From: Isoptericola sp. AK164
GTDB taxonomy: Bacteria > Actinomycetota > Actinomycetes > Actinomycetales > Cellulomonadaceae
NCBI RefSeq assembly: GCF_029643425.1
Contig: NZ_CP119106.1
Location: 620,001-684,000, forward strand
Length of the DNA: 64,000 nucleotides
Direction of reading: 5' to 3'
In this document: positions 14,614 through 50,436 of the stretch, piece after piece
How the letters are laid out: each line of letters opens with the position of its first letter
How positions within the stretch are numbered: the first letter of the stretch is position 1
Notes under the pieces: generated by a model
Told to the model about the DNA's origin: nothing
The model's input: the letters and a program-made list of their open reading frames with translations, nothing else
The model's database searches: none
Position numbers and translations under genes: made by a program

Positions 14614-14756
14614 GGCGCGAGGTAGGCAACCTTGGCGCGAGGTAGGCAACCCTGGCGCGAGGTAGGCAACTCCCCGGCGAAGTTGGCCTACCTCGCCGGG
14701 GAATTGCCTACGTCGCGAGAGACTTGCCTACCTCGCCGAAGGTTTGCCTACCTCGC
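14614..14756. repeat. Palindromic 20-bp repeat array 1 (3 forward + 4 inverted units)
   Basis: Cores GAGGTAGGCAA (GGTAGG at 14621, 14641, 14661) are followed by inverted cores TTGCCTACCTC (CCTAC at 14687, 14707, 14727, 14747); each series has an exact 20-bp period. Spacer bases differ between units. The last inverted unit overlaps the 3' end of the iminopeptidase gene and supplies its stop. It lies between convergent genes; possible bidirectional terminator or protein-binding array. Confidence 0.95.
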
Positions 14757-16064
14757 GGGGAGGGGGCCGCCGCGGGCGTCGAGCCGGTCCAGGAGCGTGG
14801 TGAACACGTTCCCGGCGCGCAGCCCGTCGTGCTCGAACTCGTTGGTCACCCAGGCCCGGGCGTTGCGCACGTGATCCGCGGTGTCGAGGGACAGGTCGGC
14901 GTCGACGAACATGTCGTCGAAGTACACCGCGGCCTCCAGGGGCACGTCGTTGGCGGCGAGCACCTCCATGTCGTACAGCGCGGGCCAGTCGCGTCGGGCT
15001 GCGAGCGCGTGTGCCGCGTCCCGGAAGGGGCGGAGGGCGCTGATCTGGTCGAACATCCAGGGGTAGATCATCTCGCCGGTGAACAGCAGCGGGCGCTCGT
15101 CGGGTCCGAACGCGCCGTCGGTGGCGCGGACCTCCGCGGCGGCCCAGGGGACGAACGCCCCGCCCTCGGCGTAGATGGACTCGTGCAGGACGGCGTACAG
15201 CGGGTTCGTCGCGAACGACGTCGCGGCCTCCACCTCGGCCAGGAAGGTGTCGGTCAGCTCGTCCGGGGCGACGTCGTCGAACGCCTCGTCGACGATCCAG
15301 TGCACCCGCTCGAACCCGGGGCCCATCCCGAAGGCCATGCCCAGGGACTGGAAGCGTTCCACGCTCAGCAGGTCACCGCCGGGCAGGTGCACGTCACCGA
15401 CGGCGATCCGGTCGGCGATCCGCGCGATCCGCTCGACGTCGGCGGGGTAGCGCTCGCGGTACTGCGCGTTCTTCGCGACGACGCGCGCCTGCGTGCGCTC
15501 GTAGACCTGCTCGGCGCTGTCGTGCAGGCCGGCCAGGCCGCCCGTGACGTAGCAGGCCGCCAGGCCCTCGGGGGCGAAGGAGAGGTAGGTCAGGGTGATG
15601 AACCCGCCGTAGGACTGCCCGAGGCTGCACCACCGCCGACCGCCGTAGACGGTGTTCCGCACGTGTTCGGCGTCGCGCACGATCGAGTCGGCGCGGAAGT
15701 GGGTGAGGTACTCCGCCTGCGCCTCCGGCGAGCCGAGCCGCTGCAGCGCGCCGGCGCGCACCGCCGTCGAGCGTCCCGTGCCGCGCTGGTCGAGCAGCAC
15801 CACCCGGAACCGCTTCAACGCCTCGCCGACCCAGCCCTCGGCGCCGGTGGGGCGCGGCCCCTTGCCGCCCGGGCCGCCCTGGAGGAACACCAGCAGAGGC
15901 AGGTCCTCGGACCGCTTGGTCGGGGCGACCAGCTCGCGGACGAACACGCTCAGCGTGCGGTCGTCGGCGGGAGCGGTCCAGTCGAGGGGGACCGTGAGGG
16001 TGCGGTCGGTGACGTGGACGCCGGGGATCGTGTACGAGGACTCGCTCGTGACGGTGCTCTTCAC
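14748..16064 (-). CDS. Proline iminopeptidase (alpha/beta hydrolase, family S33)
   Basis: 438-residue S33 peptidase releasing N-terminal proline from peptides. Seen: oxyanion-hole motif LLVFLQGGPGGKG, nucleophile elbow GQSYGG, and NEFEHDGLR near the C-terminus supplying the catalytic histidine. The long lid between (~residues 200-330) is typical of tricorn-interacting or prolyl aminopeptidases of this size. No signal peptide, so cytoplasmic. The GTG start at 16064 is supported by TAGGCT six bases upstream. The final codons GCG AGG TAG are formed by a repeat unit, so the present C-terminus (Ala-Arg) may derive from repeat insertion or spread. Confidence 0.88.
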   Translation of the reverse strand: MKSTVTSESSYTIPGVHVTDRTLTVPLDWTAPADDRTLSVFVRELVAPTKRSEDLPLLVFLQGGPGGKGPRPTGAEGWVGEALKRFRVVLLDQRGTGRSTAVRAGALQRLGSPEAQAEYLTHFRADSIVRDAEHVRNTVYGGRRWCSLGQSYGGFITLTYLSFAPEGLAACYVTGGLAGLHDSAEQVYERTQARVVAKNAQYRERYPADVERIARIADRIAVGDVHLPGGDLLSVERFQSLGMAFGMGPGFERVHWIVDEAFDDVAPDELTDTFLAEVEAATSFATNPLYAVLHESIYAEGGAFVPWAAAEVRATDGAFGPDERPLLFTGEMIYPWMFDQISALRPFRDAAHALAARRDWPALYDMEVLAANDVPLEAAVYFDDMFVDADLSLDTADHVRNARAWVTNEFEHDGLRAGNVFTTLLDRLDARGGPLPAR

Positions 16065-16070
16065 GACGCC

Positions 16071-16076
16071 AGCCTA
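16071..16076 (-). promoter_or_regulatory. -10 box TAGGCT, leaderless promoter of the iminopeptidase
   Basis: On the minus strand TAGGCT is followed by six bases and GTG at 16064. Confidence 0.5.
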
Positions 16077-16153
16077 CGAGCCTCGCCCCGCACCGCACGG
16101 GCGCGGACGAGCCGAGGGGCCGGCACGACCCGTGCGACCGGTGGTGCACGACT

Positions 16154-16255
16154 GGGCCGGGGGCCGGCACCGTGCGAGCTGTCGTCGACGTCCCGAAGTG
16201 GAGGCCGCCCCGCGGCCGTGAACGCGACTGCTCGCACGGTGCCGGCCCCCGGCCC
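16154..16255. repeat. Inverted repeat, 26-bp perfect arms, 50-nt loop, downstream of glpK
   Basis: Arms 16154-16179 and 16230-16255 are exact reverse complements and extremely GC-rich. The 50-nt loop contains its own small hairpin (GGCCGC/GCGGCC around 16203). The element lies 11 nt past the glpK stop and likely ends the glp operon; no T-tract. Confidence 0.85.
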
Positions 16256-16266
16256 GTGCTCAGGAA

Positions 16267-17781
16267 CTACTTGGTGTCGGCGTCGACCCAGTCGAAGGTC
16301 TTCGTGACGGCCTTCTTCCACTCGCGGTACAGCCGCTCACGCTCGTCCTGCGGCATGGACGGCGTCCACCGCTGGCCCTCGACCCAGTTGTCGCGGACGT
16401 CCTGCTCGCCCTGCCAGAACCCGACGGCGATACCGGCGGCGTAGGCCGCACCGAGGGCCGTGGTCTCGGCGACCTCGGGCCGCACGACGTCGACCCCGAC
16501 CTGGTCGGCCTGGAACTGCATGAGCAGGTTGTTGGCGACCATGCCGCCGTCGACCTTGAGCTCGGTCAGGTCGACCCCGGAGTCGGCCCGCATGGCGTCC
16601 ATGACCTCGCGGGTCTGGAACGCGACGGCCTCGAGGGCGGCGCGGGCGACGTGGTTGCGGTTGACGTACCGCGTCAGACCGACGAGGGCACCGCGGGCGT
16701 CGGGGCGCCAGTACGGGGCGAACAGACCGGAGAACGCCGGGACGAAGTACGCCCCGCCGTTGTCGTCGACCTTGCCCGCGAGGTACTCGACGTCCGGGGC
16801 GTCGTCGAACAGGCCGAGGTTGTCCCGCAGCCACTGCACCAGCGACCCGGTGACGGCGATGGCTCCCTCGAGGGCGTAGACGGCGGGAGCGTCGCCGACC
16901 TTGTAGCAGACCGTGGTGAGCAGGCCGTTCTCGCTGGCCACCTTCTCCGTGCCGGTGTTGAGCAGCATGAAGTTGCCGGTGCCGTAGGTGTTCTTCGCGG
17001 TACCGACCTCGAAGCACGCCTGGCCGAAGGTGGCGGCCTGCTGGTCGCCGAGGATGCCGGCGATGGGCACTCCCGGGACCATGCCCTTGGCCCGGCCGTG
17101 GCCGTAGATCTCGGACGACGAGCGGATCTCCGGCAGCATCGACAGCGGGACGCCCATGTCCGCGGCGATGTCCTCGCGCCACGAGAGCGTGTCGAGGTCC
17201 ATGAGCATCGTGCGCGAGGCGTTGGTGACGTCGGTGACGTGGACGCCGCCCTCGGTCCCGCCGGTCATGTTCCACAGCACCCAGGTGTCGGTGTTGCCGA
17301 ACAGCAGGTCGCCGCGGTCGGCGGCCTCGCGGGCGCCCTCGACGTTCTCGAGGATCCAGGCGATCTTCGGTCCGGAGAAGTAGGTCGCCAGGGGCAGGCC
17401 GACGATCGACTTGTACTTCTCGGGCCCTTCGTCGCCGGCCAGGCGGTCGGCGATCGCCTGCGTCCGCGTGTCCTGCCAGACGATGGCGTTGTAGACCGGC
17501 TTGCCGGTGTTCTTGTCCCACACGACGGTGGTCTCGCGCTGGTTGGTGATGCCGACGGCGGCGATGTCGTCGTGCGAGAGGTTCGCGCGGGTGAGAGCGA
17601 GGCCGACGACCTCGCGGACGTTGTTCCAGATCTGCTCGGGGTTGTGCTCGACCCAGCCCGCCTGCGGGAAGATCTGGTCGTGCTCGAGCTGGCCGGTCGA
17701 GACGATCCGGCCGGAGTGGTCGAAGATGATCGCCCGGGAGCTCGTGGTGCCCTGGTCGATCGCGAGGACGTAGTCAGCCAT
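16267..17781 (-). CDS. glpK: Glycerol kinase
   Basis: 504-residue FGGY-family glycerol kinase, forming sn-glycerol 3-phosphate from glycerol and ATP in the cytoplasm. The N-terminus [12 protein letters not shown] (phosphate 1), TNQRET, WQDTRT (glycerol contacts), [23 protein letters not shown] and VDGGMVANN (ATP domain) are all present. The length equals that of typical GlpK. The ATG follows GGACCCACC and is the third gene of glpD-glpF-glpK, 61 nt after glpF. Transcription probably comes from upstream of glpD, controlled by the divergent SorC-type regulator. Confidence 0.97.
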
Positions 17782-17842
17782 GGTGGGTCCTTCGTGTCGT
17801 TCGTGCGTCGTTGCGGTAGGTGGTGGTGGTCGTGCGGGCGTC

Positions 17843-18577
17843 TCAGCCGAAGGCGACCACGGGGGCGAGCAAGCCGGCGAGCACGCCGCCGACGATCGGG
17901 CCGAGGACCGGCACCCAGGAGTAGCCCCAGTCGCTGGATCCCTTGCCCTTGATCGGCAGCAGCGCGTGCGCGATGCGGGGACCGAGGTCACGGGCCGGGT
18001 TGATGGCGTAGCCGGTGGGGCCACCGAGGCTTGCACCGATCCCGACCACCAGCAGGGCGACGGCGAGCGGTCCGATGTCACCGGGCCAGTTGCCGAAGTT
18101 CAGCACCACGAACACCAGCACGAAGGTGCCGATGACCTCGGTGACGAAGTTCCACGGGTAGGAGCGGATCTCCGGTCCGGTGGAGAAGACCGCGAGCTTC
18201 GTCGCCGCCGGGGCCTCCTCGTCGAAGTGCTTCTTGTAGGCGAGGAACGCGATCGCCGAACCGAGCGCCGCGCCGACGATCTGTGCACCGATGTAGGTGA
18301 CGCCGTTCGCCAGCGTGACGGGGATACCGGGGCCGAACTCCGCGGCGCCGCTGGCCCAGATGCCGAAGGTGACGGCCGGGTTGATGTGCGCGCCGCTCGC
18401 GAAGGCGACGTACACACCGGAGAACACACCCAGGCCCCATCCGAAGTTGATGAGCAGCCATCCCCCGTTGAAGCCCTTGTTCTTGGGCAGGATGACGTTC
18501 GCCACCACGCCGGCACCGAGGAGCAGCAGCATCCCGGTCCCGAGCATCTCGGTGACGAAGAGTTCGCCTGTTGACAT
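17843..18577 (-). CDS. glpF: Glycerol facilitator (aquaglyceroporin)
   Basis: 244-residue MIP channel with six membrane segments and both half-helix motifs: GAHINPAVT (first NPA) and [13 protein letters not shown] (second NPA, with the Asp that marks aquaglyceroporins). A glycerol-type selectivity filter is therefore expected, giving passive glycerol entry. It lies between glpD and glpK on the same strand. The 123-bp gap to glpD contains hairpins that may tune relative expression. Confidence 0.95.
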
Positions 18578-18655
18578 CGTCGTCTCGCTTTCTTGGTCTC
18601 CCGGGACCTCGCCCGGGTCGTCGTGCCGCGGCAGCGGTGCCGCGACGTACCGGTC

Positions 18656-18693
18656 CCGGCCCGGTCACCACCAGCAGGTGGCGGCCGGGCCGG
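18656..18693 (-). terminator. Hairpin between glpD and glpF
   Basis: Arms CCGGCCCGG (18656-18664) and CCGGGCCGG (18685-18693) with an inner CACC/GGTG pair, just past the glpD stop. No T-tract; could attenuate or stabilise the 3' end of glpD mRNA. Confidence 0.45.
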
Positions 18694-18700
18694 AGTCTTC

Positions 18701-20443
18701 TCAGGTGCGCAGCGGCCGCATCGACGCCACGTCACCGGCCCTGCCGCGCGCGGCGGCAGCGCCCTCGTCGTCGGGCGCGGCGGCTGCCGCGTCCTCGGCC
18801 TCGGCCCGGGCGGTGTAGCTGTCGATCTCGCTCTGCTTCGTGGCGTCGTCCCAGCCCAGCAGGGGTGCGACGACGTCGGCGATCTCGGGCAGCGCGGCCC
18901 GGCCCTTGTCCGCCACCTCGTAGACGAGCCGCGTCCGGCGGACCAGCAGGTCCTCCAGGTGCAGCGCGCCCTCGTGGCTGACGGCGTAGTGGATCTCCGC
19001 GCGCAGGTAGGCCGGCGCGTGCTCGAGCGGCTCGGCGAGCGTGGGGTCCTCCTCGCACAGCGTGACGAGCTCGCGCAGCGCGGAGCCGTACCGGTGCAGG
19101 AGGTGGTCGACCATCGCCGGGCTCCAGCCGTACCGCTGCGCCCACGACCGGGCCTGGCGCCGGACGGCGGACAGCCCGACCGCGCCGACGAGCGGGATCT
19201 GGTGGGTCACCGACGGCAGGGCGTGCGCCCGCTGGCCGATGGCGAAGTCCACGGCGTCCTTGGCCATGACGCGGTAGGTGGTCAGCTTGCCGCCGGCGAT
19301 GACGGTCAGGCCGGGCGCGGGGGAGGCGACGGTGTGCTCGCGCGAGACCTTCGCCGAGCTCGTGCCCTCCTTGGTGCCCGGCTGCAGCAGCGGGCGCAGG
19401 CCGGCGTAGGTGCCGATGACGTCCTCGCGCGTGAGCGGGTGGGCCAGCACGGCGTTGGCGTGGTCGAGCACGTAGTCGATGTCGGCGGCCGTGGCCACCG
19501 GGTGCACCGGGTCCAGCTCCCACGGGGTGTCCGTGGTGCCGATGATCCAGTACCGGGACCAGGGGATGATGAACAGCACCGACTTCTCGGTCTGCAGGAT
19601 CAGGCCGACCTGCCCCTTGATGCGCTCCCGGGGGACGACGATGTGGATGCCCTTGGAGGCCAGCACGTGCAGGCCCCCCTCGTCGCCGGCGAGGGCCTCG
19701 GTGTCCTCGGTCCACACGCCGGTGGCGTTGATGACGTGCCGCGCGCGGACGGTGATCTCGCGACCGGTCTCCAGGTCGACGACGACGGCCCCGTTGACCG
19801 TGCCCGTGGCGCTCTTGGTGAGCTCGACGACCTGGGTGCGGGTCGCGGCGTGGGCGCCGTAGTCGACGGCGGTGCGCACGAGGGTCGCGACCAGGCGCGA
19901 GTCGTCCACCGACGCGTCCCAGTACTGGACGGCGCCGATGGCGGCCTCGTGCGCCAGGTCGGGGAACTTGCGGCTGATCTGCCGGCGCGTCAGGTGCCGG
20001 TGCAGCGGCATCGCGCGCTTGCCGGGGGCGACCGAGGCGAGGGTGTCGTACAGGGCGATGCCGGCGCCGACGTAGGCGCGTTCCCACATGCGGTGCTCGA
20101 GCGGGTACAGGAACGGGACCGGCTTGACGAGGTGCGGGGCGAGCTCCTTGAGGAGCAGGTCGCGCTCGGTCAGGGCCTCGTGGACGAGGGAGAAGTCGAG
20201 CATCTGCAGGTAGCGCAGACCGCCGTGGACGAGCTTGCTGGACCAGCTCGAGGTGCCGGCGGACCAGTCCTGGGCCTCGACGATCGCGGTGGACAGGCCG
20301 CGGGTGACGGCGTCGAGCGCGATGCCGGCGCCGGTGACGCCGCCGCCGATGACGAGGACGTCGAGCTCGGTGGCGGAGTCCTGCGAGCTCTCGAGCGCCG
20401 CCAGGGCGCGGGTGCGTGACTCGGCAGTGAGTCGGGAGGCCAT
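18701..20443 (-). CDS. glpD: Aerobic glycerol-3-phosphate dehydrogenase (FAD)
   Basis: 580-residue FAD-dependent dehydrogenase of the GlpD/GlpA family, oxidising glycerol 3-phosphate to DHAP and reducing membrane quinone (here menaquinone). The FAD dinucleotide motif VLVIGGGVTGAGIALDA starts near residue 28; SAGTSSWSSKLVHGGLRYL (substrate/FAD loop), YWDASVDDSRLV, GVWTED and the GGKLTTYR block are typical. The C-terminal cap domain is complete and followed by an Ala/acidic tail. The ATG at 20443 is preceded by CGAGAGGAGC. First gene of the operon, divergent from the SorC regulator. Confidence 0.96.
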   Translation of the reverse strand: MASRLTAESRTRALAALESSQDSATELDVLVIGGGVTGAGIALDAVTRGLSTAIVEAQDWSAGTSSWSSKLVHGGLRYLQMLDFSLVHEALTERDLLLKELAPHLVKPVPFLYPLEHRMWERAYVGAGIALYDTLASVAPGKRAMPLHRHLTRRQISRKFPDLAHEAAIGAVQYWDASVDDSRLVATLVRTAVDYGAHAATRTQVVELTKSATGTVNGAVVVDLETGREITVRARHVINATGVWTEDTEALAGDEGGLHVLASKGIHIVVPRERIKGQVGLILQTEKSVLFIIPWSRYWIIGTTDTPWELDPVHPVATAADIDYVLDHANAVLAHPLTREDVIGTYAGLRPLLQPGTKEGTSSAKVSREHTVASPAPGLTVIAGGKLTTYRVMAKDAVDFAIGQRAHALPSVTHQIPLVGAVGLSAVRRQARSWAQRYGWSPAMVDHLLHRYGSALRELVTLCEEDPTLAEPLEHAPAYLRAEIHYAVSHEGALHLEDLLVRRTRLVYEVADKGRAALPEIADVVAPLLGWDDATKQSEIDSYTARAEAEDAAAAAPDDEGAAAARGRAGDVASMRPLRT

Positions 20444-20489
20444 CGGTCGTGCTCCTCTCGGTCGGGCAGGTACCCAGAGCAACACCGGT

Positions 20490-20523
20490 CGAACGTTCTC
20501 GCAAGCGGGATGCACGAACGTGC
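20490..20523. promoter_or_regulatory. Candidate operator pair between glpD and the SorC regulator
   Basis: CGAACGTTC (20490-20498, containing the perfect palindrome GAACGTTC) and CGAACGTGC (20515-20523, within GCACGAACGTGC) share CGAACGT with a 25-bp period. Their position between divergent genes suits dual control of glp and autoregulation. Confidence 0.5.
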
Positions 20524-20542
20524 AAACGCGCGGCGATCGCGC

Positions 20543-20548
20543 CATGCT
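20543..20548 (+). promoter_or_regulatory. Weak -10 box CATGCT of the SorC regulator
   Basis: CATGCT, six bases, then GTG at 20555; it supports that start over the ATG at 20510. Confidence 0.35.
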
Positions 20549-20554
20549 GGTCCG

Positions 20555-21508
20555 GTGACGACCGATCGGGAGCGGGACGTGGTCATGGCGGCGACCATGT
20601 ACTACCTGCAGGACATGAAGATGGAGTCGATCGCGAGGCACCTGCGCACCTCGCGGTCGACGGTCTCGCGGCTGCTCAAGAGGGCGCGGGAGACCGGCGT
20701 CGTCGAGATCACGCTGCGCCCGACGCACACGCGTGCACCCGGGCTGGGGCAGCGGCTCGCGGCGGAGCACGACATCGACACCTACGTCGTGCCTGTCCCG
20801 GACGCCGCCGACGACGCGGAGCGGCTCCGGCAGGTGGCCCGCACGACGGCGCGACTCGTGACCCGGTGGTTCGACTCCGACATGGTCCTGGGCATCGCCT
20901 GGGGCACGACGCTGGCCGCCGTCGCGGAGCACCTCATGGACAAGCCCACGCGAGGGTCCGCCGTCGTCCAGCTCAACGGCGCGGCCAACAACCGCACCTC
21001 GGGGGTCGCCTACGCCGGCGACCTGCTCGACCGGATCGCGGCGACCTTCGAGGCCCAGGCGCACCCGTTCCCGGTGCCCGCCTTCTTCGACTTCGCCGAG
21101 ACCCGCGACGCGATGTGGCGGGAGCGGTCGGTGCGCCGCGTGCTGGACGTGCAGGCCCGGACCGACCTCGCCGTGTTCTCCGTCGGGGCGCTGACCGGCG
21201 GCGTCCCGTCGCACGTGTACACCGCGGGCTACCTCGAGCCCGAGGACGTGGCGGCGCTGGAGGCCGCCGACGTCGTCGGGGACGTCTGCACGGTGTTCCT
21301 GCGCCCCGACGGGTCGTTCCGCGACATCGCCATCAACGCCCGGGCGACGGGCCCCACGCCCGACCAGCTGCGGCGGTTCCGTCGTCGCCTGTGCGCCGCC
21401 GCGGGCGACAACAAGGTCGCACCGCTGCGGGCGGCGCTCGCCGCCGGCGTCGTCACCGACCTGGTGATCGACGAGATCACCGCAGCGCGGCTCGTCGGCC
21501 AGGACTGA
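20555..21508 (+). CDS. SorC/DeoR-family sugar-binding transcriptional regulator
   Basis: 317-residue SorC-family regulator. N-terminal helix-turn-helix (AATMYYLQDMKMESIARHL, TSRSTVSRLLKRARETGVVEI) is followed by the SorC effector domain, which resembles sugar-phosphate isomerases (VLGIAWGTTLAAVAEHL; GSAVVQLNG; FSVGALTGG; GDVCTVFLRPDG). Such proteins bind phosphorylated sugars or trioses as tetramers. Being divergent from glpD-glpF-glpK it is probably the glycerol regulator, perhaps sensing glycerol 3-phosphate or DHAP (inference). Actinomycete glycerol operons are better known with IclR-type GylR, so this is a different regulator class. Confidence 0.87.
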   Translation: MTTDRERDVVMAATMYYLQDMKMESIARHLRTSRSTVSRLLKRARETGVVEITLRPTHTRAPGLGQRLAAEHDIDTYVVPVPDAADDAERLRQVARTTARLVTRWFDSDMVLGIAWGTTLAAVAEHLMDKPTRGSAVVQLNGAANNRTSGVAYAGDLLDRIAATFEAQAHPFPVPAFFDFAETRDAMWRERSVRRVLDVQARTDLAVFSVGALTGGVPSHVYTAGYLEPEDVAALEAADVVGDVCTVFLRPDGSFRDIAINARATGPTPDQLRRFRRRLCAAAGDNKVAPLRAALAAGVVTDLVIDEITAARLVGQD

Positions 21509-38714: not shown

Positions 38715-38741
38715 GACGGGCTCCCTCGGTCCACGACCCAT

Positions 38742-38761
38742 AATTCCTCGGGTGAGGAATT
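38742..38761. promoter_or_regulatory. Palindromic operator upstream of the ABC exporter operon
   Basis: AATTCCTCGGGTGAGGAATT: perfect 8-bp arms with a 4-bp centre, AT-rich against the background, about 30-47 bp before the preferred start at 38714. A typical TetR-type site and probably the target of the convergent TetR regulator. Confidence 0.65.
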
Positions 38762-38773
38762 CTTGGCTCGACC

Positions 38774-38884
38774 CTACTCCACGATCGTGGCGCGGTCAGC
38801 CCCGTCGAGCACGACGAGCGGGCCCTCGTCCGGCGTCGGCGCCTCGAAGCCGTCGAGGTAGGCGACCGCACGGTCGGGCCGTGC
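38774..38884 (-). other. 36 coding-like codons in frame after the ktrA stop
   Basis: Past the TGA of the KtrA-like gene the same frame stays open for 36 codons to a TAG at 38774-38776, with nearly all third positions G or C and a protein-like sequence (AVAYLDGFEAPTPDEG, LVVLDGADRATIVE). It has no usable start codon of its own. It could be a C-terminal extension cut off by a nonsense change, a gene remnant, or chance. Confidence 0.4.
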
Positions 38885-43464: not shown

Positions 43465-43752
43465 GTGAGCAGCGCCCCGACGACACCCGAGGAGACGGCA
43501 CGGGTGGTGATGTACACCCGCCCCGGCTGCCACCTGTGCGACGACGCACGGGAGGTCGTGGCCTCGGTGTGCGAGCGGGCGGGCGCGGCCTGGCGGGAGA
43601 TCGACATCGAGACCGATGCCGCGCTGACCGAGCGGTACGGCGACTACGTGCCCGTCGTCGAGGTGGACGGCGTGCAGCAGGGGTTCTGGCGGGTGGACGC
43701 GGCGAGGCTGGCGCGACGTCTGGCGGCACCTGCGGGAGGGAAGCGGACGTGA
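43465..43752 (+). CDS. Glutaredoxin-family thiol-disulfide protein
   Basis: 95-residue thioredoxin-fold protein of the DUF836/glutaredoxin-like group. Redox pair Cys22/Cys25 in RPGCHLCDDA, and cis-Pro segment DYVPVVEVDG. GTG start, leaderless. The stop overlaps the rex start (GTGA at 43749-43752), so redox protein and NADH sensor are made together. Confidence 0.9.
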   Translation: MSSAPTTPEETARVVMYTRPGCHLCDDAREVVASVCERAGAAWREIDIETDAALTERYGDYVPVVEVDGVQQGFWRVDAARLARRLAAPAGGKRT

Positions 43753-44441
43753 TCGAGATCGGCGAGGTGACGGTGCCCGCGGCGACGGTGTCGCGGCTGC
43801 CGTACTACTTGCGCGCCCTGCGCGACCTGCTGCGGGACGGGGTGACCACGACGTCGTCCTCGGCGCTGGCGGAACGCTCCGGCGTGGGCTCCGCGCAGCT
43901 GCGCAAGGACCTGTCCTACCTGGGGTCGTTCGGGACGCGCGGCGTGGGCTACGAGGTCGAGACGCTGGCGTCCTCGATCAGCACGGCGCTGGGTCTGGGC
44001 TCGGAGCACCGGCTCGCGATCGTCGGCGTCGGCAACCTCGGCAACGCGCTGGCGAACTACTCGGGCTACGCGGCGAGGGGGTTCCGGCTCGTGGCGCTGA
44101 TCGACGCCGACCCCGACGTCGTCGGTCGACGCGCGGCAGGTCTGGAGGTGGAGCACTCCGACGGGCTCGAGGAGATCCTGGCCGCGCGGGGAGTGTCCAT
44201 GGTGATCCTGGCGACCCCCGGCGCGGCGGCGCAGGTCGTCGCCGAGCGGATCGTGGCGTGCGGTGTCCGGGAGATCCTGTCGTTCTCCCCGGTGGCGCTG
44301 CAGCTGCCCGACGACGTCGTCGTGCGCAGCGTCGACGTCGCCGGCGAGCTGCAGATCCTCGCGTTCCACGCGGCGGCACGCCACGCGCAGGAAGGCGCGA
44401 CGGTCGACGGCCGGGCCGCCCCGGCCGCCCCCGCGAGGTAG
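43749..44441 (+). CDS. rex: Redox-sensing transcriptional repressor Rex
   Basis: 230-residue Rex, which binds DNA when NAD+ is high and releases with NADH, controlling respiratory genes. N-terminal winged helix (TVSRLPYYLRALRDLL ... GVGSAQLRKDLSYLGSFGTRGVGY) and Rossmann domain LAIVGVGNLGNALANY followed by LIDADP, with the C-terminal swapped helix. The GTG start overlaps the preceding stop. The final codons GCG AGG TAG fall in the first unit of repeat array 2, so the C-terminal Pro/Ala tail ends in repeat-encoded Ala-Arg. Confidence 0.96.
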   Translation: MIEIGEVTVPAATVSRLPYYLRALRDLLRDGVTTTSSSALAERSGVGSAQLRKDLSYLGSFGTRGVGYEVETLASSISTALGLGSEHRLAIVGVGNLGNALANYSGYAARGFRLVALIDADPDVVGRRAAGLEVEHSDGLEEILAARGVSMVILATPGAAAQVVAERIVACGVREILSFSPVALQLPDDVVVRSVDVAGELQILAFHAAARHAQEGATVDGRAAPAAPAR

Positions 44442-44649
44442 GCGAACCTCCGGCGAGGTAGGCAACTTCCCCGCGAGGTAGGCACCAAGACGGCGAGGTA
44501 GGCAACTCCGCCCCGGGGTGCGTCCGACGCGGTTCCCGCCGTCCTGACGCGCAGCTCTCCTACCTGGCCGAGAAGTTGCCTACCTCGGCGGTCGCTCGCC
44601 TACCTCGGCGGTAGTTCGCCTACCTCGGGGAGAAGTTGCCTACCTCGCC
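44433..44649. repeat. Palindromic 20-bp repeat array 2 (4 forward + 5 inverted units)
   Basis: Forward cores GCGAGGTAGG (GGTA at 44437, 44457, 44477, 44497) and inverted cores (TACC at 44561, 44581, 44601, 44621, 44641), each with an exact 20-bp period; ~55 bp of non-repeat centre. The first unit carries the rex stop codon; the last ends 7 bp before the stop of the convergent YceI gene, so the array fills the whole intergenic space. Confidence 0.95.
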
Positions 44650-44656
44650 GCAGGGG

Positions 44657-45208
44657 TCAGTTCTGCTCGATCGCCGAGACGTCCAGAGCGATCTTGACCT
44701 TCTCGCCCACCAGGACGCCGCCGGTCTCGAGCGCGGCGTTCCAGGTCAGGCCGAAGTCCTTGCGGTTGATGACCAGCTCGGACTCGAAGCCGGCACGCTT
44801 GTTGCCGAACGGGTCCACCGCGGCGCCCTCGAAGGCGACCGGCAGGTCGATGCTCTGGGTCACGCCGTTGATCGTCAGGTCGCCGGTCACGACGTAGCCG
44901 TCGTCGTCGGCGGTGACGGCCGTCGAGTTGAAGGTCCAGGTCGGGCGCTCCTCGGCGTGCCAGAAGTCTGCGCTCTTGAGGTGCTGGTCACGGTTCTCGT
45001 CACCGGTGTTGATCGCGGCGGCGTCGAGCTCGACGGCGACGGCGGAGGACTCGAGGTCCTCGCCGACGGTGATGGTGCCGGCGGTGATGCCGATGGTCCC
45101 GCGGACCTTCGAGATCCCGGCGTGGCGGACGGAGAACGACGCGGTGGAGTGGCCGGCGTCGACGGTGTAGGTACCGGTGGACAGGTCCGAAGGCAGGGGC
45201 GTGGCCAT
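44657..45208 (-). CDS. YceI-family lipid-binding-like protein
   Basis: 183-residue YceI-like lipocalin-type beta barrel (DAGHSTASFSVRHAGISKVRG; HLKSADFWHAEERPTWTFNSTAV; GDLTINGVTQSIDLPV; FGLTWNAALETGGVLVGEKVKIALDV). These proteins bind long isoprenoids such as polyprenyl chains or quinones. There is no signal peptide, so a cytoplasmic form, as often in actinobacteria. The ATG follows AAGGAGCCCC. Adjacent to menaquinone and cytochrome c genes; a quinone-related role is possible but not shown. Confidence 0.9.
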   Translation of the reverse strand: MATPLPSDLSTGTYTVDAGHSTASFSVRHAGISKVRGTIGITAGTITVGEDLESSAVAVELDAAAINTGDENRDQHLKSADFWHAEERPTWTFNSTAVTADDDGYVVTGDLTINGVTQSIDLPVAFEGAAVDPFGNKRAGFESELVINRKDFGLTWNAALETGGVLVGEKVKIALDVSAIEQN

Positions 45209-45254
45209 GGAGGGGCTCCTTGTCGAGTGGTGTTGCTGGACGTGTGGCAACCGT

Positions 45255-45274
45255 CCCGGGGCGGACCCGGGGCG
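45255..45274 (-). promoter_or_regulatory. Tandem CCCGGGGCG words upstream of yceI
   Basis: CCCGGGGCG occurs at 45255-45263 and 45266-45274, an 11-bp period (one helical turn), about 50 bp before the yceI start. Possible activator site. The rest of the 229-bp gap shows no other clear feature. Confidence 0.3.
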
Positions 45275-45437
45275 ATTCCATCGAAACGCATGAACATGGC
45301 GCCCCGCCGGAGTATTCCCGGTCGCCGCCGTCGATGTGAGCCGATGGCGCCCGACCCGTCGTCGGGACACCGTGACCCGCCTCACGACGGCGGCCCGGAC
45401 GGCGGGAGCACCCGCAGGATCTGGGACACTAAGGCTC

Positions 45438-46082
45438 ATGGCCACCACCACCGTCCATCTGTTGCGGCACGGCGAGGTCCACAACCCCGACGGCGTCCTG
45501 TACGGACGCATCCCCGGGTACCGGCTGTCCGACCGCGGCCAGCAGATGGCCCGGCGTGTCGCGGAGCACCTGTCCGGCGCGGGCCGGGACGTCGCCGCCG
45601 TCGTGGCGAGCCCCCTCCAGCGTGCCCAGGAGACGGCGCAGCCGATCGCCGACGCCTTCGCGCTCGACCTGGCCACCGACGACCGCCTGATCGAGGCGGG
45701 CAACCGCTTCGAGGGCACGACGATCGGCAAGAACCCGGGCCAGCTCGCGCACCCGCGGTTCTGGAAGCTGCTGTGGAACCCGCTGCGGCCGTCGTGGGGC
45801 GAGGCCTACGCCGACCAGGTCGTGCGCATGCGGGCCGCCGTCGACGACGCACGCCGCGCCTTCGCCGGGCACGAGGTCGTCCTGGTCAGCCACCAGCTCC
45901 CCGTCTGGCTGACGCGTCGGTCCTACGAGGGGCGCCGACTGGCGCACGACCCGCGACGCCGCCAGTGCTCCCTCGCCTCGCTGACGTCGTTGACCTTCAC
46001 CGACGACCGGTTCGCCGCCCTGCACTACGCGGAGCCCGCGGCCGACCTGCTCGTCGGCGCCAACCCCACCCCGGGCGCCTGA
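45438..46082 (+). CDS. Histidine phosphatase family protein
   Basis: 214-residue phosphoglycerate-mutase-like phosphatase. Catalytic His in HLLRHGEVHNP (RHG motif), second block VVASPLQRAQETAQ, and the distal His in VLVSHQLPVW. First gene of the cytochrome c maturation operon, where such phosphatases are regularly found in actinobacteria (ccsX-ccdA-resB-ccsB neighbourhood). Substrate unknown. GACACT seven bases before the ATG is a weak leaderless -10. Confidence 0.88.
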   Translation: MATTTVHLLRHGEVHNPDGVLYGRIPGYRLSDRGQQMARRVAEHLSGAGRDVAAVVASPLQRAQETAQPIADAFALDLATDDRLIEAGNRFEGTTIGKNPGQLAHPRFWKLLWNPLRPSWGEAYADQVVRMRAAVDDARRAFAGHEVVLVSHQLPVWLTRRSYEGRRLAHDPRRRQCSLASLTSLTFTDDRFAALHYAEPAADLLVGANPTPGA

Positions 46083-46663
46083 TGCGGCGCCGCCACGCGG
46101 CGGGCCTCGCGCTCGCCCTCGGCGCGGCCGTCGGCCTGGCCGGCTGCGGTGCCGCCGACTCCGGCGCGGGCGACGTCGTCGGCCAGGGCTTCGTCTCCGG
46201 CGACGGCACCGTCCAGCAGTGGGAACCGGACGACCGCACCGACACGGTGGTCGTCGAGGGAACCAGCTTCGAGGGCGACGAGGTCTCCACCGCCGACTGG
46301 CGCGGCGACGTCGTCGTGCTCAACACCTGGTACGCCGGCTGCGCGCCCTGCCGCGCCGAGGCGCCGGCCCTGGTCGAGATCGCCACCGAGCGCGCCGACG
46401 AGGGCGTGCACCTGCTGGGGATCAACACCGAGGACGAGGCCGGTGCCGCGTTGGCCTTCCAGCGCACCTTCGAGGTGCCCTACCCGTCCGTCGAGGACCG
46501 CAGCGGCCAGGTCGTGGCCGGCCTCTCCGGCGTCGTGCCCCTGCAGGCCGTCCCGTCCACGGTGGTGCTCGACGCCGAGGGCCGGGTGGCGGCACGCGTC
46601 GTCGGCGAGGTCTCCGGCACCACCCTGAACGGTCTGATCGACGACGCGCTGGCGGACGCCTGA
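46082..46663 (+). CDS. TlpA/ResA-like thiol:disulfide lipoprotein (CcsX)
   Basis: 193-residue redoxin. Lipoprotein signal with lipobox LAGC (Cys22), then a thioredoxin domain with WYAGCAPCRAEAP (Cys87/Cys90) and the PSTVVLD cis-Pro segment. It keeps the apocytochrome CXXCH thiols reduced outside the membrane, receiving electrons from CcdA. The start overlaps the preceding stop (TGATG, 46080-46084); the next gene begins one base after its stop. Confidence 0.92.
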   Translation: MRRRHAAGLALALGAAVGLAGCGAADSGAGDVVGQGFVSGDGTVQQWEPDDRTDTVVVEGTSFEGDEVSTADWRGDVVVLNTWYAGCAPCRAEAPALVEIATERADEGVHLLGINTEDEAGAALAFQRTFEVPYPSVEDRSGQVVAGLSGVVPLQAVPSTVVLDAEGRVAARVVGEVSGTTLNGLIDDALADA

Positions 46664-46664
46664 C

Positions 46665-47459
46665 ATGGGGGAGATCTTCGCGACGACGGCGGTGAGCGGC
46701 TCGATGCTGCTCGCCGTCCCGGTCGCGCTGGTCGCGGGGCTGGTCTCCTTCGCCTCGCCCTGCGTGCTGCCGCTGGTTCCCGGGTACGTCGGCTACGTGG
46801 GCGGCATGGCCGCGGCGAACGCCGGCCCGGCACCGGCCTCCCGGGGCGGCACGACGACGGCGGCACCGCCGGCCGCACCGGCCCGCGGTCGCGTCGTGGC
46901 CGGGGTCGGGCTCTTCGTGCTCGGCTTCACCGCCGTGTTCGTCGCGCTCATGGCCGCCGCGGGCGCCGTCGGGGCGTACCTGGTGCGCTACGAGGACCTC
47001 CTGACGCGGGTGCTCGGCGTCGTCGTCATCCTCATGGGGGTGGCGTTCCTCGGCGGGATCGGCTGGTTGCAGCGCGAACGCCGTCTGCACGTCAGCCCGA
47101 GGACCGGGCTGTGGGGGGCTCTGCTGCTCGGCGTGGTCTTCGGGCTGGGCTGGACGCCCTGCCTGGGGCCGACGCTGGCCGCCGTGCAGTCCCTCGCCCT
47201 CGACGAGGCCTCCGCCACGCGCGGCGTCGTCCTCGGCATCGCGTACTGCGTCGGCCTCGGCGTGCCCTTCCTGCTGGTGGCGCTCGGCCTGCAGTCGTCG
47301 CAGCGGATGCTCGGCTTCCTGCGCGACCACCGCCGCACGATCATGCGCGTCGGCGGCGGACTGCTCATCGTGATCGGCCTGGCGATGGTGACCGGCCTGT
47401 GGGGGGCGACCACCAGCCTGCTGCAGAGCTGGATCAGCGGATACACGACGGTGGTGTGA
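46665..47459 (+). CDS. ccdA: Cytochrome c biogenesis protein CcdA
   Basis: 264-residue membrane protein with six segments carrying electrons from cytoplasmic thioredoxin to CcsX. The two redox cysteines are in FASPCVLPLVPGYV and WTPCLGPTLAA. A Pro/Ala-rich insert (~residues 50-75) sits in the first loop. The stop overlaps the resB start (TGATG). Confidence 0.95.
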   Translation: MGEIFATTAVSGSMLLAVPVALVAGLVSFASPCVLPLVPGYVGYVGGMAAANAGPAPASRGGTTTAAPPAAPARGRVVAGVGLFVLGFTAVFVALMAAAGAVGAYLVRYEDLLTRVLGVVVILMGVAFLGGIGWLQRERRLHVSPRTGLWGALLLGVVFGLGWTPCLGPTLAAVQSLALDEASATRGVVLGIAYCVGLGVPFLLVALGLQSSQRMLGFLRDHRRTIMRVGGGLLIVIGLAMVTGLWGATTSLLQSWISGYTTVV

Positions 47460-49192
47460 TGAGCGAGCGGACCTACCGTCCCGAGGGAATCGCGGACGAC
47501 TTCACCACCGGTGCGCCGACCTCGACGGCGGACGCGGTGCCCGGAGCGGCCGGGCAGCCGCCGTCGGCCCCCCGCGCCCCGCAGCTCGGCTGGCGCGGGA
47601 TGCTCCGCTGGACCTGGCGCCAGCTGACGAGCATGCGCGTGGCGCTGATGCTGCTCATGCTGCTGGCCGTCGCGGCTCTGCCGGGGTCGATCCTGCCGCA
47701 GCGCGACCAGGACCCCTCCGCCGTGGTGGAGTACCTCGGCGAGCACCCGACGGCGGGGGAGTGGCTCGACCGCTTCGGCTTCTTCGACGTCTACACCTCG
47801 GTCTGGTTCTCGGCCATCTACCTGCTGCTGCTCGTCTCCCTGGTGGGCTGCATCGTGCCGCGCACGATCGCGCACGCCCGGGCGCTGCGGGCCCGGCCCC
47901 CGCGGACCCCCGTCCGGTTCGAACGGTTCCCGGTCCACGTCACCGGGACGACGGCGGAGAGCCCGGACGAGGTCGCCGCGGCGGCCGCCGCGCACCTGCG
48001 CGGCCGGTGGCGCCGGATGCCCACGTTCCGCGTCGAGGCCGGGGCCGAGGACGCCCGGCCCGCCCGGGGCAAGGTCCCGGCGCGCCCGGCCACGCGGACC
48101 GTCGCCGCCGAGCGGGGGTACCTGCGCGAGACCGGGAACCTGCTCTTCCACCTGGCGCTGGTGGGCCTCGTGATCTCCGTCGCTGTGGGCCAGCTCCTGC
48201 ACTACCGCGGCCAGGCGATCATCACCGAGGACCGCGGCTTCGCCAACGCCGTCGTCGACTACGACACGTTCGAGTCCGGCGCGTGGTTCTCCCCGGAGTC
48301 CCTCGTGCCGTTCGCGATGACGCTGGACGCCTTCGAGTCCGAGTTCGCCACCGACACCGTGGCGTTCGCCCAGTCGCGCGACTTCACCGCCGAGGTCACC
48401 GTGCACGAGCCGGACGGGTCGTCGCGGGCCGAGACCATCAAGGTCAACCACCCGCTCGACGTCGACGGCGCGAAGATCTACCTGCAGGGCAACGGCTACG
48501 CCCCGGAGATCAGCGTCACCGACGCCGAAGGCGCCACGGCGTTCGACGGACGCGTGCCCTTCCTGCCCGAGGACCAGGTGTACACCTCGCGCGGCGTGGT
48601 CAAGGTCCCGGACGTCTCGCCGGGTCTCGACCAGATCGGGCTCATCGGGTACTTCCTGCCCACGGCGGTGCTCAACGACGACGGGACCGCCGAGTCGGTG
48701 TTCCCGCTGCCGGAGGACCCGCTGCTCGTGCTCGAGGTGTACCGCGGCGACCTGGGGCTCGACGAGGGCGTCCCGCAGAACGTCTACCGCCTGGACACGG
48801 CGAACCTCACCGCCTCGGTGGACGACGACGGCGAACGGGTCACGCTGCTGCTCGAACCCGGCGACACCGTCGAGCTGCCCGACGGGCTGGGTACGGTCAC
48901 CCTCGGTGAGGACGTGCCCCGGTTCGTCGCCCTGGACCTGCGCCACGACCCGTCGCTGGCGTGGGTGCTGTCCTTCGCGCTGCTGGCGCTGCTGGGCCTG
49001 ACGGGCTCGCTGTTCCTGCCGCGGAGGCGTGTCTGGGTGCGATCATGGACGTCCGACGGCGTCACGCAGGTAGAGGTCGCCGGCCTGGCCCGCGGGGACG
49101 ACGCCGGGCTGGAGCCCGAGGTCGACCGGCTGCTGACCGCGCTGCCCGGCCTGGAGCGGGCCCGACCGACGAGAACGAGCGAGGAAGACTGA
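47459..49192 (+). CDS. resB: Cytochrome c biogenesis protein ResB
   Basis: 577-residue ResB/CcsA-partner protein. Cytoplasmic Pro-rich N-terminus, membrane helices (SMRVALMLLMLLAVAALPGSILPQ; SAIYLLLLVSLVGCIVPR; GNLLFHLALVGLVISVAVGQ), a long extracytoplasmic domain and a final helix (AWVLSFALLALLGLTGSLFLPRR). With CcsB forms the system II haem ligation complex. Overlaps ccdA by 1 base; ccsB starts 2 bases after its stop. Confidence 0.95.
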   Translation: MSERTYRPEGIADDFTTGAPTSTADAVPGAAGQPPSAPRAPQLGWRGMLRWTWRQLTSMRVALMLLMLLAVAALPGSILPQRDQDPSAVVEYLGEHPTAGEWLDRFGFFDVYTSVWFSAIYLLLLVSLVGCIVPRTIAHARALRARPPRTPVRFERFPVHVTGTTAESPDEVAAAAAAHLRGRWRRMPTFRVEAGAEDARPARGKVPARPATRTVAAERGYLRETGNLLFHLALVGLVISVAVGQLLHYRGQAIITEDRGFANAVVDYDTFESGAWFSPESLVPFAMTLDAFESEFATDTVAFAQSRDFTAEVTVHEPDGSSRAETIKVNHPLDVDGAKIYLQGNGYAPEISVTDAEGATAFDGRVPFLPEDQVYTSRGVVKVPDVSPGLDQIGLIGYFLPTAVLNDDGTAESVFPLPEDPLLVLEVYRGDLGLDEGVPQNVYRLDTANLTASVDDDGERVTLLLEPGDTVELPDGLGTVTLGEDVPRFVALDLRHDPSLAWVLSFALLALLGLTGSLFLPRRRVWVRSWTSDGVTQVEVAGLARGDDAGLEPEVDRLLTALPGLERARPTRTSEED

Positions 49193-49193
49193 C

Positions 49194-50171
49194 ATGGAGA
49201 TCGGCGACCTGAGCGACCTGCTCGTGTGGGCGGCGGCGACGACCCTCGCCCTCGCGATGATCGCGTTCGCGATCGACCTGGGACGTCGCACCGACGAACG
49301 CCTCGAGGCGCGCACCGAGACCCGGGCCGCCATCGGTGCCGGGGTCGGCGCGCCGGAGGCGGGGTCGGCGTCGGGCGGCGGCTCCGTGCCCGCCGAGTCC
49401 TCCGCGCCTCCTCGCCGGGCCGCCGGGATCGGCATGTCGACGTCCTGGCTCGGCACGATCCTGCTCGGTGTCGCGATCCTGCTCCGCGGCGTCGCGGCCG
49501 GACGAACGCCGTGGGCCAACATGTACGAGTTCACGCTCGTGGGGTCGTTCGTGGCGATGACGGTGTTCCTGGTGTGGAACCTGCGCCGCGACGTGCGGTT
49601 CCTCGGTGCGTTCGTCACCGGCCTGGTCACCCTGTTCATCGTCGTGGGGCTGAACTCGTTCCACGTCGCGGCGACCGGCGTGCAGCCTGCGCTGCAGAAC
49701 TACTGGCTGGTCATCCACGTCGGCGTCGCGATCGCGGCGACCGGGATCTTCACGATCGCCTTCGTGCTCTCCGCCCTGCAGCTGCTGCGGGACGCGCGCG
49801 ACACCGGGTCGCCGTTCCTGACCCGGCCCGGGTTCCGTTGGCTCGACCGGATGCCGACCCCGACGTCGCTGGAGTCGATGTCGTTCCGGCTCAACGCGGT
49901 CGGCTTCGTGATGTGGACCTTCACGATCATCGGCGGCGCGATCTGGGCCGAGGACGCCTGGGGCCGCTACTGGGGCTGGGACCCCAAGGAGGTCTGGAGC
50001 TTCATCATCTGGGTCGTGTACGCGGCCTACCTGCACGCGCGCACGACGCGGGGCTGGTCCGGACGGCGGGCCGCCTGGTTCGTCGTCGTCGGCTACGCCT
50101 GCGTGCTGTTCAACTTCACCGGCGTGAACCTGATCTTCAACGGCAAGCACTCGTACTCGGGCATCAGCTGA
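49194..50171 (+). CDS. ccsB: Cytochrome c biogenesis protein CcsB (haem-handling)
   Basis: 325-residue CcsA/ResC family protein with eight or so membrane segments. The haem-binding tryptophan-rich motif reads GRYWGWDPKEVWSFIIWVVYA, and conserved histidines lie in VGLNSFHVA, YWLVIHVGV and YLHARTT. A Gly/Ala/Ser-rich linker sits between the first two helices. Last gene of the maturation operon, followed by repeat array 3. Confidence 0.95.
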   Translation: MEIGDLSDLLVWAAATTLALAMIAFAIDLGRRTDERLEARTETRAAIGAGVGAPEAGSASGGGSVPAESSAPPRRAAGIGMSTSWLGTILLGVAILLRGVAAGRTPWANMYEFTLVGSFVAMTVFLVWNLRRDVRFLGAFVTGLVTLFIVVGLNSFHVAATGVQPALQNYWLVIHVGVAIAATGIFTIAFVLSALQLLRDARDTGSPFLTRPGFRWLDRMPTPTSLESMSFRLNAVGFVMWTFTIIGGAIWAEDAWGRYWGWDPKEVWSFIIWVVYAAYLHARTTRGWSGRRAAWFVVVGYACVLFNFTGVNLIFNGKHSYSGIS

Positions 50172-50212
50172 CCCCCGGGCGGGCAGGTCTGTCCTCAGAG
50201 AGGCCAGGTCGG

Positions 50213-50436
50213 GCCGAGGTAGGCAACTTGTGCGCCAGGTAGGCCGGGTTGCGGCGAGGTAGGCAACTTGTGCGCCGGGTAGGCCGGGTTGCGGCGAGGT
50301 AGGCAACGACAACCGCCAGGTAGGCCATCTCCGGTGGGGAGTCCCCGGGTCGGGCGGCCCTGCTCTACCTCGCCGGGATCTTGCCTACCTCGGCCGACCG
50401 GTTGCCTACCTCGGCGGGATCCTGCCTACCTCGGCG
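50213..50436. repeat. Palindromic 20-bp repeat array 3 (6 forward + 4 inverted units)
   Basis: Forward cores at 50218, 50238, 50258, 50278, 50298, 50319 and inverted cores at 50366, 50386, 50407, 50427 (20-bp period, two 21-bp steps). The forward units alternate between two types, giving a 40-bp higher-order repeat (50216-50255 and 50256-50295) with a single mismatch, a sign of recent duplication. The 298-bp gap between convergent ccsB and the PLDc_N gene holds nothing else recognisable. Confidence 0.95.

What the first reader, a model, noticed from the sequence alone, without database searches (positions are those of the whole stretch)
14614..50436. A single repeat family restricted to convergent gene pairs, always oriented forward-then-inverted
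All three arrays lie between 3' ends of convergent genes (DUF4260/iminopeptidase, rex/yceI, ccsB/PLDc_N), and each can fold as one large multi-register hairpin from either strand. This suggests a dedicated bidirectional terminator, an anti-sense or collision insulator, or a nucleoid-protein binding array not matching any named family I know.
Basis: partly seen in the sequence, partly recalled or inferred. Interest (0 to 1): 0.75.

Follow-up and report, generated by a model that had tools for sequence, protein, structure and literature searches.

The report
Helix-phased repeat arrays at gene ends
Short DNA repeats spaced 20 bases apart sit just after gene ends in a group of actinobacteria, mostly pointing the same way relative to the gene, and may be a so far undescribed device that stops or insulates transcription.

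Summary
The window's three arrays are real and belong to a genome-wide family: 332 exact CGAGGTAGGC copies versus 13 for the reversed control. "Convergent-only" is wrong: of 49 arrays found, 27 lie in convergent, 22 in tandem and 0 in divergent gaps. The unit of the rule is the arm: 59 of 76 arms lie nearest a gene 3' end that they follow in sense; 21 of 76 supply its TAG stop codon. Where opposed arms exist the order is forward-then-inverted (58 of 58, four samples). The heart CGAGGTAG at period 20 occurs in 35 of 221 family genomes, often with species-specific remainders. Two genus members instead carry an unrelated core (YGCTGACT) at period 20, with mixed orientation. A hairpin alone does not explain this: 22 of 49 arrays have one arm and mostly do not fold, and in G000 opposite arms are no more alike than different arrays. 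The distance between opposed arms is periodic at about 10 bp. Best reading: polar, helix-phased sites for an unknown DNA-binding protein acting as 3'-end terminator or roadblock, with a hairpin added in two-armed arrays. No binder and no transcription data were seen; plain hairpins and selfish repeats remain serious rivals.

The parts
14618..14667 (+). Array 1, F arm: three exact CGAGGTAGGC cores at 20-nt period, after the DUF4260 gene
14686..14755 (-). Array 1, R arm: four cores (three exact), after the alpha/beta hydrolase gene; the outermost core holds that gene's TAG stop
14001..14579 (+). DUF4260 gene, left partner of array 1
   Evidence: PF14079
14748..16064 (-). alpha/beta hydrolase (aminopeptidase-like) gene, right partner of array 1; its stop codon lies in a repeat core
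38854..38863 (+). Lone exact core in a tandem gap; the orthologous gap of G001 holds an 8-core F-R array
44434..44503 (+). Array 2, F arm: four exact cores; the first holds the TAG stop of rex (44439-44441)
44578..44647 (-). Array 2, R arm: four exact cores after yceI, plus a worn core at 44558-44567
43749..44441 (+). rex-like gene (Put_DNA-bind_N + CoA_binding)
44657..45208 (-). yceI gene
   Evidence: PF04264
50215..50325 (+). Array 3, F arm: five cores (three exact, two with one mismatch) after ccsB, plus a worn core at 50275-50284
50383..50433 (-). Array 3, R arm: three exact cores after the PLDc_N gene
49194..50171 (+). cytochrome c assembly (ccsB-like) gene
   Evidence: PF01578
50470..50832 (-). 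PLDc_N-domain gene
   Evidence: PF13396

Best explanation
Each arm is a polar 3'-end module: 2-15 copies of a site whose family-wide heart is CGAGGTAG, one every 20 bp (two helical turns), placed mostly on or just after a stop codon in the sense of the gene. I infer that an unknown sequence-specific DNA-binding protein fills the array on one face of the helix and blocks or releases RNA polymerase arriving from the gene, so it acts as a terminator and insulator. In convergent pairs two modules stand back to back, which gives the forward-then-inverted order and also lets the RNA fold into a strong hairpin, a second route to termination. Shown: period, prevailing sense polarity, 3'-end placement, F-R order, core conservation, and a 10-bp periodicity across the centre. 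Inferred: the protein, the roadblock, the effect on transcription.
For: Sense placement in G000: 59 of 76 arms lie nearest a gene 3' end they follow in sense, 7 nearest one in antisense, 10 nearest a 5' end; of 12 one-armed arrays in tandem gaps 10 are sense; 0 of 49 arrays are divergent. F-R order of opposed arms: 26 of 26 in G000, 7 of 7 in G001, 16 of 16 in G017, 9 of 9 in genus g8; one RR array in each of G000 and g8 is not counted there. Sequence-specific constraint: in units flanked by exact cores 20 nt away on both sides, and not themselves selected on, the core departs from CGAGGTAGGC at 0.22 of 10 positions in G000 (107 units; 87 exact), while the spacer departs from its modal letters at 3.87 of 10; G001 0.15 against 3.70 (33 units), G017 0.43 against 3.46 (37 units). 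Opposite arms of one G000 array are no more alike (4.63 of 10 spacer positions) than different arrays (5.10), while units within an arm are (6.3-6.8), so pairing of spacers is not what is kept there. Spacing: 171 of 211 same-strand neighbour distances up to 110 nt are exactly 20. F-to-R centre distances are periodic at 10.0, 10.1 and 10.1 bp in G000, G001 and G017 (n=24, 9, 15), combined P=0.0004 over all periods 6-16. Terminator role: array-free convergent gaps of 80-300 nt nearly all fold strongly (43 of 49 z<=-3) and so do two-armed arrays (23 of 23 tested); at the yceI/rex locus G010 and G013 show an ordinary hairpin, by eye, where G000, G017, G001 and G015 have arrays.
Against: No binding protein was found and no transcript ends were seen. 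One-armed arrays (exact cores) in tandem gaps are less one-sided elsewhere: sense in 5 of 7 in G017, 1 of 2 in G001, 3 of 6 in genus g8; four of the antisense ones (one in G001, three in g8) have a worn opposite arm when read by eye. Arrays turn over: of 11 orthologous convergent gaps of G000 and G001, 1 has arrays in both, 3 only in G000, 2 only in G001, 5 in neither. G013 carries a 20-nt family with another core whose arms are mostly antisense to the nearest 3' end (14 of 26) or near 5' ends (7 of 26), with 3 of 16 arrays divergent, so polarity is not universal. In genus g8, arm-to-arm spacer likeness is clear (9.17 vs 7.61 of 12 over 29 elements, 0 of 20000 shuffles), as a hairpin model predicts. 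More near-identical spacers are shared between arms than column shuffling gives (G000 49.7 vs 29.0, sd 9.5; G017 19.3 vs 6.8; G001 2.3 vs 0.5; g8 21 vs 2.7), which hints at copying between loci. The centre-distance test was chosen after seeing the distances, and single genomes give only P=0.04, 0.12 and 0.14.
Confidence: 0.45

Rival explanations
1. Plain intrinsic bidirectional terminators: the two arms pair in RNA from either strand; the repeats are only the material from which the stem is built.
For: Two-armed arrays fold far better than shuffles (23 of 23 tested z<=-3, median -10.1). In genus g8 the compact 69-bp F-F-R-R element keeps arm-to-arm complementarity and often inner pairs such as AAC..GTT / AGC..GCT (by eye). 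With the array masked, another strong stem is found in 6 of 27 array gaps against 39 of 77 array-free convergent gaps (masked gaps offer less sequence).
Against: 22 of 49 arrays have one arm, median z -0.4, 5 of 22 z<=-3. By a strict perfect-stem measure even unmasked array gaps reach the threshold in only 10 of 27. Spacers of opposite arms do not match in G000. A stem needs neither an invariant core across loci and species nor a 20-nt period nor 10-bp periodicity across the loop. First cores often overlap the stop codon (21 of 64), under the last ribosome.
Confidence: 0.22
2. Selfish or neutral short tandem repeat: units spread and expand by slippage and are tolerated only after stop codons; the TAG in the core makes sense-oriented copies harmless to the upstream gene.
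For: Arms grow by local duplication: about 20% of neighbouring spacers identical. Turnover between species, patchy distribution (35 of 221 genomes), species-specific remainders, an excess of shared spacers between arms in all four samples. 21 of 64 arms with a sense gene just upstream provide the gene's TAG stop.
Against: Core positions are kept while neighbouring spacer positions of the same repeats drift (0.22 against 3.87 departures of 10), which neutral decay does not give. F-R order and 10-bp periodicity of opposed arms are unexplained. No RAYT (PF01797) in 18 genus genomes; array 2 has no match in the plasmid or phage records (the other arrays were not searched).
Confidence: 0.2
3. Nucleoid, gyrase or replication-related site arrays that manage supercoils between convergent transcription units.
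For: Placement at 3' ends and convergent gaps, 10-bp periodicity, no array found in a 704-kb zone round the presumed terminus.
Against: Strict polarity relative to the gene is not expected of a wrapping site. The CGAGGTAG dimer is absent from 186 of 221 genomes of the bacterial family, whereas gyrase is universal (recalled).
Confidence: 0.08
4. DNA uptake sequence with terminator by-product, as in Neisseria and Pasteurellaceae.
For: Short conserved core, inverted pairs in tail-to-tail gaps, dialects between species (compare).
Against: Hundreds, not a thousand or more, of copies; copies sit in tandem arrays; little or no special enrichment in coding DNA (CTACCTCG 1.64 times synonymous expectation, the similar CGACCTCG 1.57).
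Confidence: 0.03

Closest known systems
DNA uptake sequences used as terminators (Neisseria, Pasteurellaceae; PMC1852404, passages seen)
   Same: Short conserved core, many copies, oppositely directed pairs enriched in tail-to-tail gaps, forming hairpins
   Different: Here 20-nt-period tandem arrays, 22 of 49 one-armed, prevailing sense polarity, fewer copies and little or no coding enrichment
REP / BIME / REPIN elements (recalled; PMC8049555 start of abstract only)
   Same: Intergenic repeats, often near gene 3' ends, in inverted arrangement
   Different: Unit not palindromic, no RAYT transposase in the genus, fixed order and 20-nt period
Hairpin terminators and hairpin clusters of bacteria (PMC8355165, start of abstract only; PMC1590033, passages)
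   Same: Structured RNA after stop codons and in convergent gaps
   Different: Core sequence shared across loci; many arrays without a hairpin
Sal-box arrays bound by TTF-I after eukaryotic rRNA genes (recalled, not searched)
   Same: Works-like analogy only: tandem polar sites after a gene that stop polymerase through a bound protein
   Different: No protein known here; dozens of genes; bacterial
Plasmid iterons (recalled, not searched)
   Same: Direct repeats of about two helical turns bound by a protein
   Different: Dispersed at gene ends on the chromosome, in opposed arms

Membership tests
DNA uptake sequence | Dispersed single copies enriched also within coding DNA | tested here: not met
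   1.64 times synonymous expectation, like the similar word CGACCTCG (1.57); 1 sense copy in genes outside arrays. A plain codon shuffle gives 2.2
DNA uptake sequence | Inverted pairs favoured in convergent gaps | tested here: met
DNA uptake sequence | Promotes uptake in transformation | not testable with these tools
   needs an experiment
REP/RAYT | Y1 transposase (PF01797) in the genome or genus | tested here: not met
   0 of 18 genomes; 5 of 14 control genomes ring
REP/RAYT | Palindromic repeat unit | tested here: not met
   the unit is asymmetric; inversion is between arms
Intrinsic terminator | Stable stem-loop after the gene | tested here: inconclusive
   23 of 23 tested two-armed arrays z<=-3, but only 5 of 22 one-armed
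Intrinsic terminator | U-tract after the stem | tested here: not met
   no T run beside the three window arrays (by eye)
Rfam RNA family | Match at gathering score | tested here: not met
   0 matches in the window
Protein-bound site array | Regular helical spacing of sites | tested here: met
   (centre test post hoc)
Protein-bound site array | A protein that binds the core | not testable with these tools
   no binding data; no candidate sought beyond PF01797

The most novel reading that the evidence does not exclude
A bacterial counterpart of polar protein-bound terminator arrays: a species-tuned DNA-binding protein occupies helix-phased 20-bp sites after stop codons and stops RNA polymerase from one side. 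Its site specificity drifts (CGAGGTAG followed by GC, CGC, AACTC or TGCC), and in two genus members the whole core has been replaced (YGCTGACT) while the 20-bp pitch is kept.
Probability: 0.27. Interest if true: 0.87.

Novelty: new variant of a known kind. Interest (0 to 1): 0.67.

Why it matters
How GC-rich actinobacteria end transcription without clear U-tract terminators is, as far as I recall, unsettled. Here is a countable family of mostly polar, helix-phased repeats at gene ends, with natural presence/absence pairs between related species and natural one-armed and two-armed forms, so hairpin and protein-roadblock models can be told apart directly. The exchange of the whole core sequence between related species with the 20-bp pitch kept is unusual for any repeat family I know.

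Tried and rejected
Rejected or weakened: REP/RAYT; uptake or Chi-like word; carriage by plasmids or phages (array 2 only); Rfam family; G-quadruplex, because the second GG of the G000 unit is missing in G001, G015 and G008 units. The idea that an in-sense stop codon is the universal point was weakened by G013, where arms are mostly antisense to the nearest 3' end. A 20-nt array of a third kind near yceI in G002 proved to be one locus only. The two viral-contig hits of the trimer are period-10 repeats of CGAGGTAGNN, not this family. The literal-sequence paper search gave 652 papers holding at least one term; none of the 20 listed is about bacterial repeats, by title. Searches on terminator, repeat, Cellulosimicrobium, Cellulomonas and Isoptericola terms found no description of this family in their listings, several of which were capped; that rests on open-access PMC texts only.

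Limits: genes were called by my own codon-usage script (a gene near window 41-42 kb seems missed). The count of 49 arrays is a lower bound, because stretches below 2.92 Mb were fetched only where capped core listings showed repeats. G017 and g8 samples were chosen round listed repeats; the 400-kb stretches of G001 and G013 were contiguous. The unit logo is selected on the core; one search repeats the comparison on unselected units. Three two-armed arrays longer than 320 nt were dropped; gaps outside 80-300 nt were dropped from its control. Genus g8 and G013 centre distances were left out (g8 elements are related by descent; G013 has another core).
Full report
WHAT IS THERE. The window is G000:C1:620001-684000 of a 3,576,703-base single-contig genome. 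No call named it. Its genus mate G017 matches Isoptericola chiayiensis KCTC 19740 by three contig lengths. They are far beyond chance (59 matches against 14.3 expected). Genome-wide there are 332 exact cores against 13 of the reversed control, and 152 exact dimers at 20-nt spacing against 0.

CENSUS. I examined 1.04 Mb of G000 (window included), called 900 genes with my own codon-usage script and found 49 arrays of two or more cores: 27 convergent, 22 tandem, 0 divergent. In the contiguous block 2.92-3.58 Mb, 10 of 105 convergent, 5 of 339 tandem and 0 of 104 divergent gaps hold one. Divergent gaps hold the most intergenic DNA of the four gap classes in the fetched stretches (44.8 of 111.7 kb), so their emptiness is not for want of room. 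Of 76 arms, 59 are nearest a gene 3' end in sense, 7 in antisense, 10 nearest a 5' end. In 21 of the 64 arms with a sense gene 3' end within 400 nt upstream, the TAG of the first core is the gene's stop codon; TAG ends 105 of the 882 called genes that show a stop. Two arms sense to two convergent genes automatically give forward-then-inverted. 26 of 26 arrays with opposed arms obey it, including 10 in tandem gaps; one further array has two R arms. 22 arrays have one arm and no opposed 20-nt pair within 400 nt on the partner side; of the 12 one-armed arrays in tandem gaps 10 are sense and 2 antisense.

RELATIVES. The exact G000 dimer occurs in 2 of 58 genomes searched, G000 included, and a slightly narrower pattern only in I. 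chiayiensis among the species collection (near-identical records may be left out there). The heart CGAGGTAG-N12-CGAGGTAG occurs in 35 of 221 family genomes, 7 of 25 genera, with no control match: 11 of 18 genus genomes (14 to 286 dimers), 16 of 17 genomes of genus g8 (3 to 25), one genome of g12 (28), four of g44 (1 to 3) and one each of three genera with a single dimer, which may be chance. The rest of the unit is species-specific: CGAGGTAGGCAAC in G000, CGAGGTAGCGC in G001, CGAGGTAGAACTC in G015, CGAGGTAGTGCC in G008. Two genus genomes without CGAGGTAG dimers, G013 and G010, have 400 and 281 dimers of an unrelated core, YGCTGACT, also at period 20; five other genomes have one or two, and the reversed control has one in each of eight genomes. 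In 400 kb of G013 that family has 16 arrays (8 convergent, 5 tandem, 3 divergent), with mixed order and mostly antisense arms (14 of 26 nearest a 3' end in antisense, 5 in sense, 7 near a 5' end). The pitch is shared (69 of 81 neighbour distances exactly 20), the polarity is not.

REPLICATION OF THE RULE. G001 (400 kb contiguous): 11 arrays, 8 convergent, 3 tandem, 0 divergent. G017 (stretches chosen round repeats): 29 arrays, 19 convergent, 10 tandem, 0 divergent, one overlapping a called gene by more than 30 nt. Genus g8 (two genomes, 20 stretches chosen round repeats): 21 arrays, 11 convergent, 9 tandem, 1 divergent. Arrays with opposed arms are F-R in 7 of 7, 16 of 16 and 9 of 9; g8 also has one RR array. 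One-armed arrays in tandem gaps are sense in 1 of 2, 5 of 7 and 3 of 6, so polarity of lone arms is weaker than in G000; of the antisense ones outside G000, one in G001 and three in g8 show a worn opposite arm by eye (that display held the G001 and g8 arrays, not those of G017), and then count as F-R. Genus g8 holds the compact form: two units, 13 nt, two inverted units, 69 bp.

EVOLUTION. Units in one G000 arm are alike (6.3-6.8 of 10 spacer positions; about 20% identical), units of opposite arms of one array (4.63) no more than units of different arrays (5.10), so arms grow by local duplication and independently. G001 and G017 give similar pictures with a very slight excess (opposite arm 6.75 and 6.94, different arrays 6.64 and 6.77, same arm 8.59 and 7.54 of 12). 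Genus g8 differs: its arms match each other (9.17 vs 7.61 of 12 over the 29 compact elements that I took from the capped listing, 0 of 20000 shuffles). Near-identical spacers are shared between arms more often than column shuffling gives in all four samples, a hint of copying between loci. Orthologous convergent gaps of G000 and G001 show turnover: both 1, G000 only 3, G001 only 2, neither 5. The shared locus is yceI/rex.

HAIRPIN OR DNA SITE. Two-armed arrays fold strongly (23 of 23 tested with z<=-3, median -10.1; three longer ones left out), array-free convergent gaps of 80-300 nt also do (43 of 49, median -6.2), one-armed arrays mostly do not (5 of 22, median -0.4). So a convergent gap of this genome usually offers a strong structure, and two-armed arrays can supply it; but the constant part of the family is a sequence at a fixed pitch. 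The logo is biased because units were chosen by their core. In units not chosen by their own core but flanked by exact cores on both sides, the core departs at 0.22 of 10 positions and the spacer at 3.87 of 10 in G000 (107 units), with the same contrast in G001 and G017. 171 of 211 neighbour distances up to 110 nt are exactly 20. The distance from the last F core to the first R core is periodic at 10.0, 10.1 and 10.1 bp in three genomes taken apart (n=24, 9, 15), combined P=0.0004 against jittered distances over all periods 6-16, with little strength at 20 (R 0.51 at 10, 0.14 at 20). The single-genome P values are 0.04, 0.12 and 0.14. This test was chosen after seeing the distances, and it uses exact cores only; a fresh genome should repeat it. 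Phasing across a variable loop is expected of sites on one face of DNA and not of an RNA stem.

READING. I commit to a polar, helix-phased binding-site array that ends or insulates transcription at gene 3' ends, with the RNA hairpin as an added effect of back-to-back arms (confidence 0.45). Shown: architecture, prevailing polarity, pitch, core constraint, turnover. Inferred: a protein, a block to polymerase. The G013 family, the antisense lone arms, the g8 arm matching, the turnover and the sharing of spacers speak against a simple version and keep the selfish-repeat and plain-hairpin rivals alive.

KNOWN RELATIVES. The nearest published parallel is the use of uptake sequences as terminators: oppositely directed pairs occur most often in tail-to-tail regions of N. 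meningitidis (PMC1852404, passages). Stem-loops prefer convergent over divergent gaps in the bacteria surveyed in PMC1590033 (passages). The passages seen do not describe tandem polar arrays. No RAYT gene was found in 18 genus genomes. Searches for a description of this family found none in their listings.

Noticed in passing
G000:C1:1344368-2048370 (outside the window): No array and no exact dimer of the family found in 704 kb round the presumed terminus; ParB-, ParA-, RsmG-, YidC-, RnpA- and RpmH-like proteins, recognised by eye, lie at the contig end, so ori is probably near position 1.
   Followed up: partly
G013:C1 about 1712250, 1772797, 1958600, 2077680: A palindromic element of about 100 bp (GGAGGGTGCCGCGCGTCGTC...GACGACGCGCGGCACCCTCC) sits between R and F arms of several YGCTGACT arrays; its central part also matches three places in the fetched G000 stretches (near 2187215, 2794720, 3189120).
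   Followed up: partly
window 38715-38884: Lone core in a tandem gap whose G001 ortholog gap carries an 8-core array: a worn or nascent fourth site in the window.
   Followed up: yes
L286 2513-2560 and L287 10752-10799: Two viral contigs hold five copies of CGAGGTAGNN at period 10, half the pitch of the bacterial arrays.
   Followed up: partly
L124 (G002, after yceI): A local 20-nt tandem array (GGGTCGTCCTGACCCGTCGC) at the orthologous 3' end, found at this one locus only in 18 genus genomes.
   Followed up: yes
genus g8 loci L193, L203, L206, L212: A second g8 class: sense tandem units spaced 20-21 nt, two of them (L193, L212) ending in a near-perfect hairpin (AGGCGTGGTC..GACCACGCCT) inside the last unit.
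   Followed up: no
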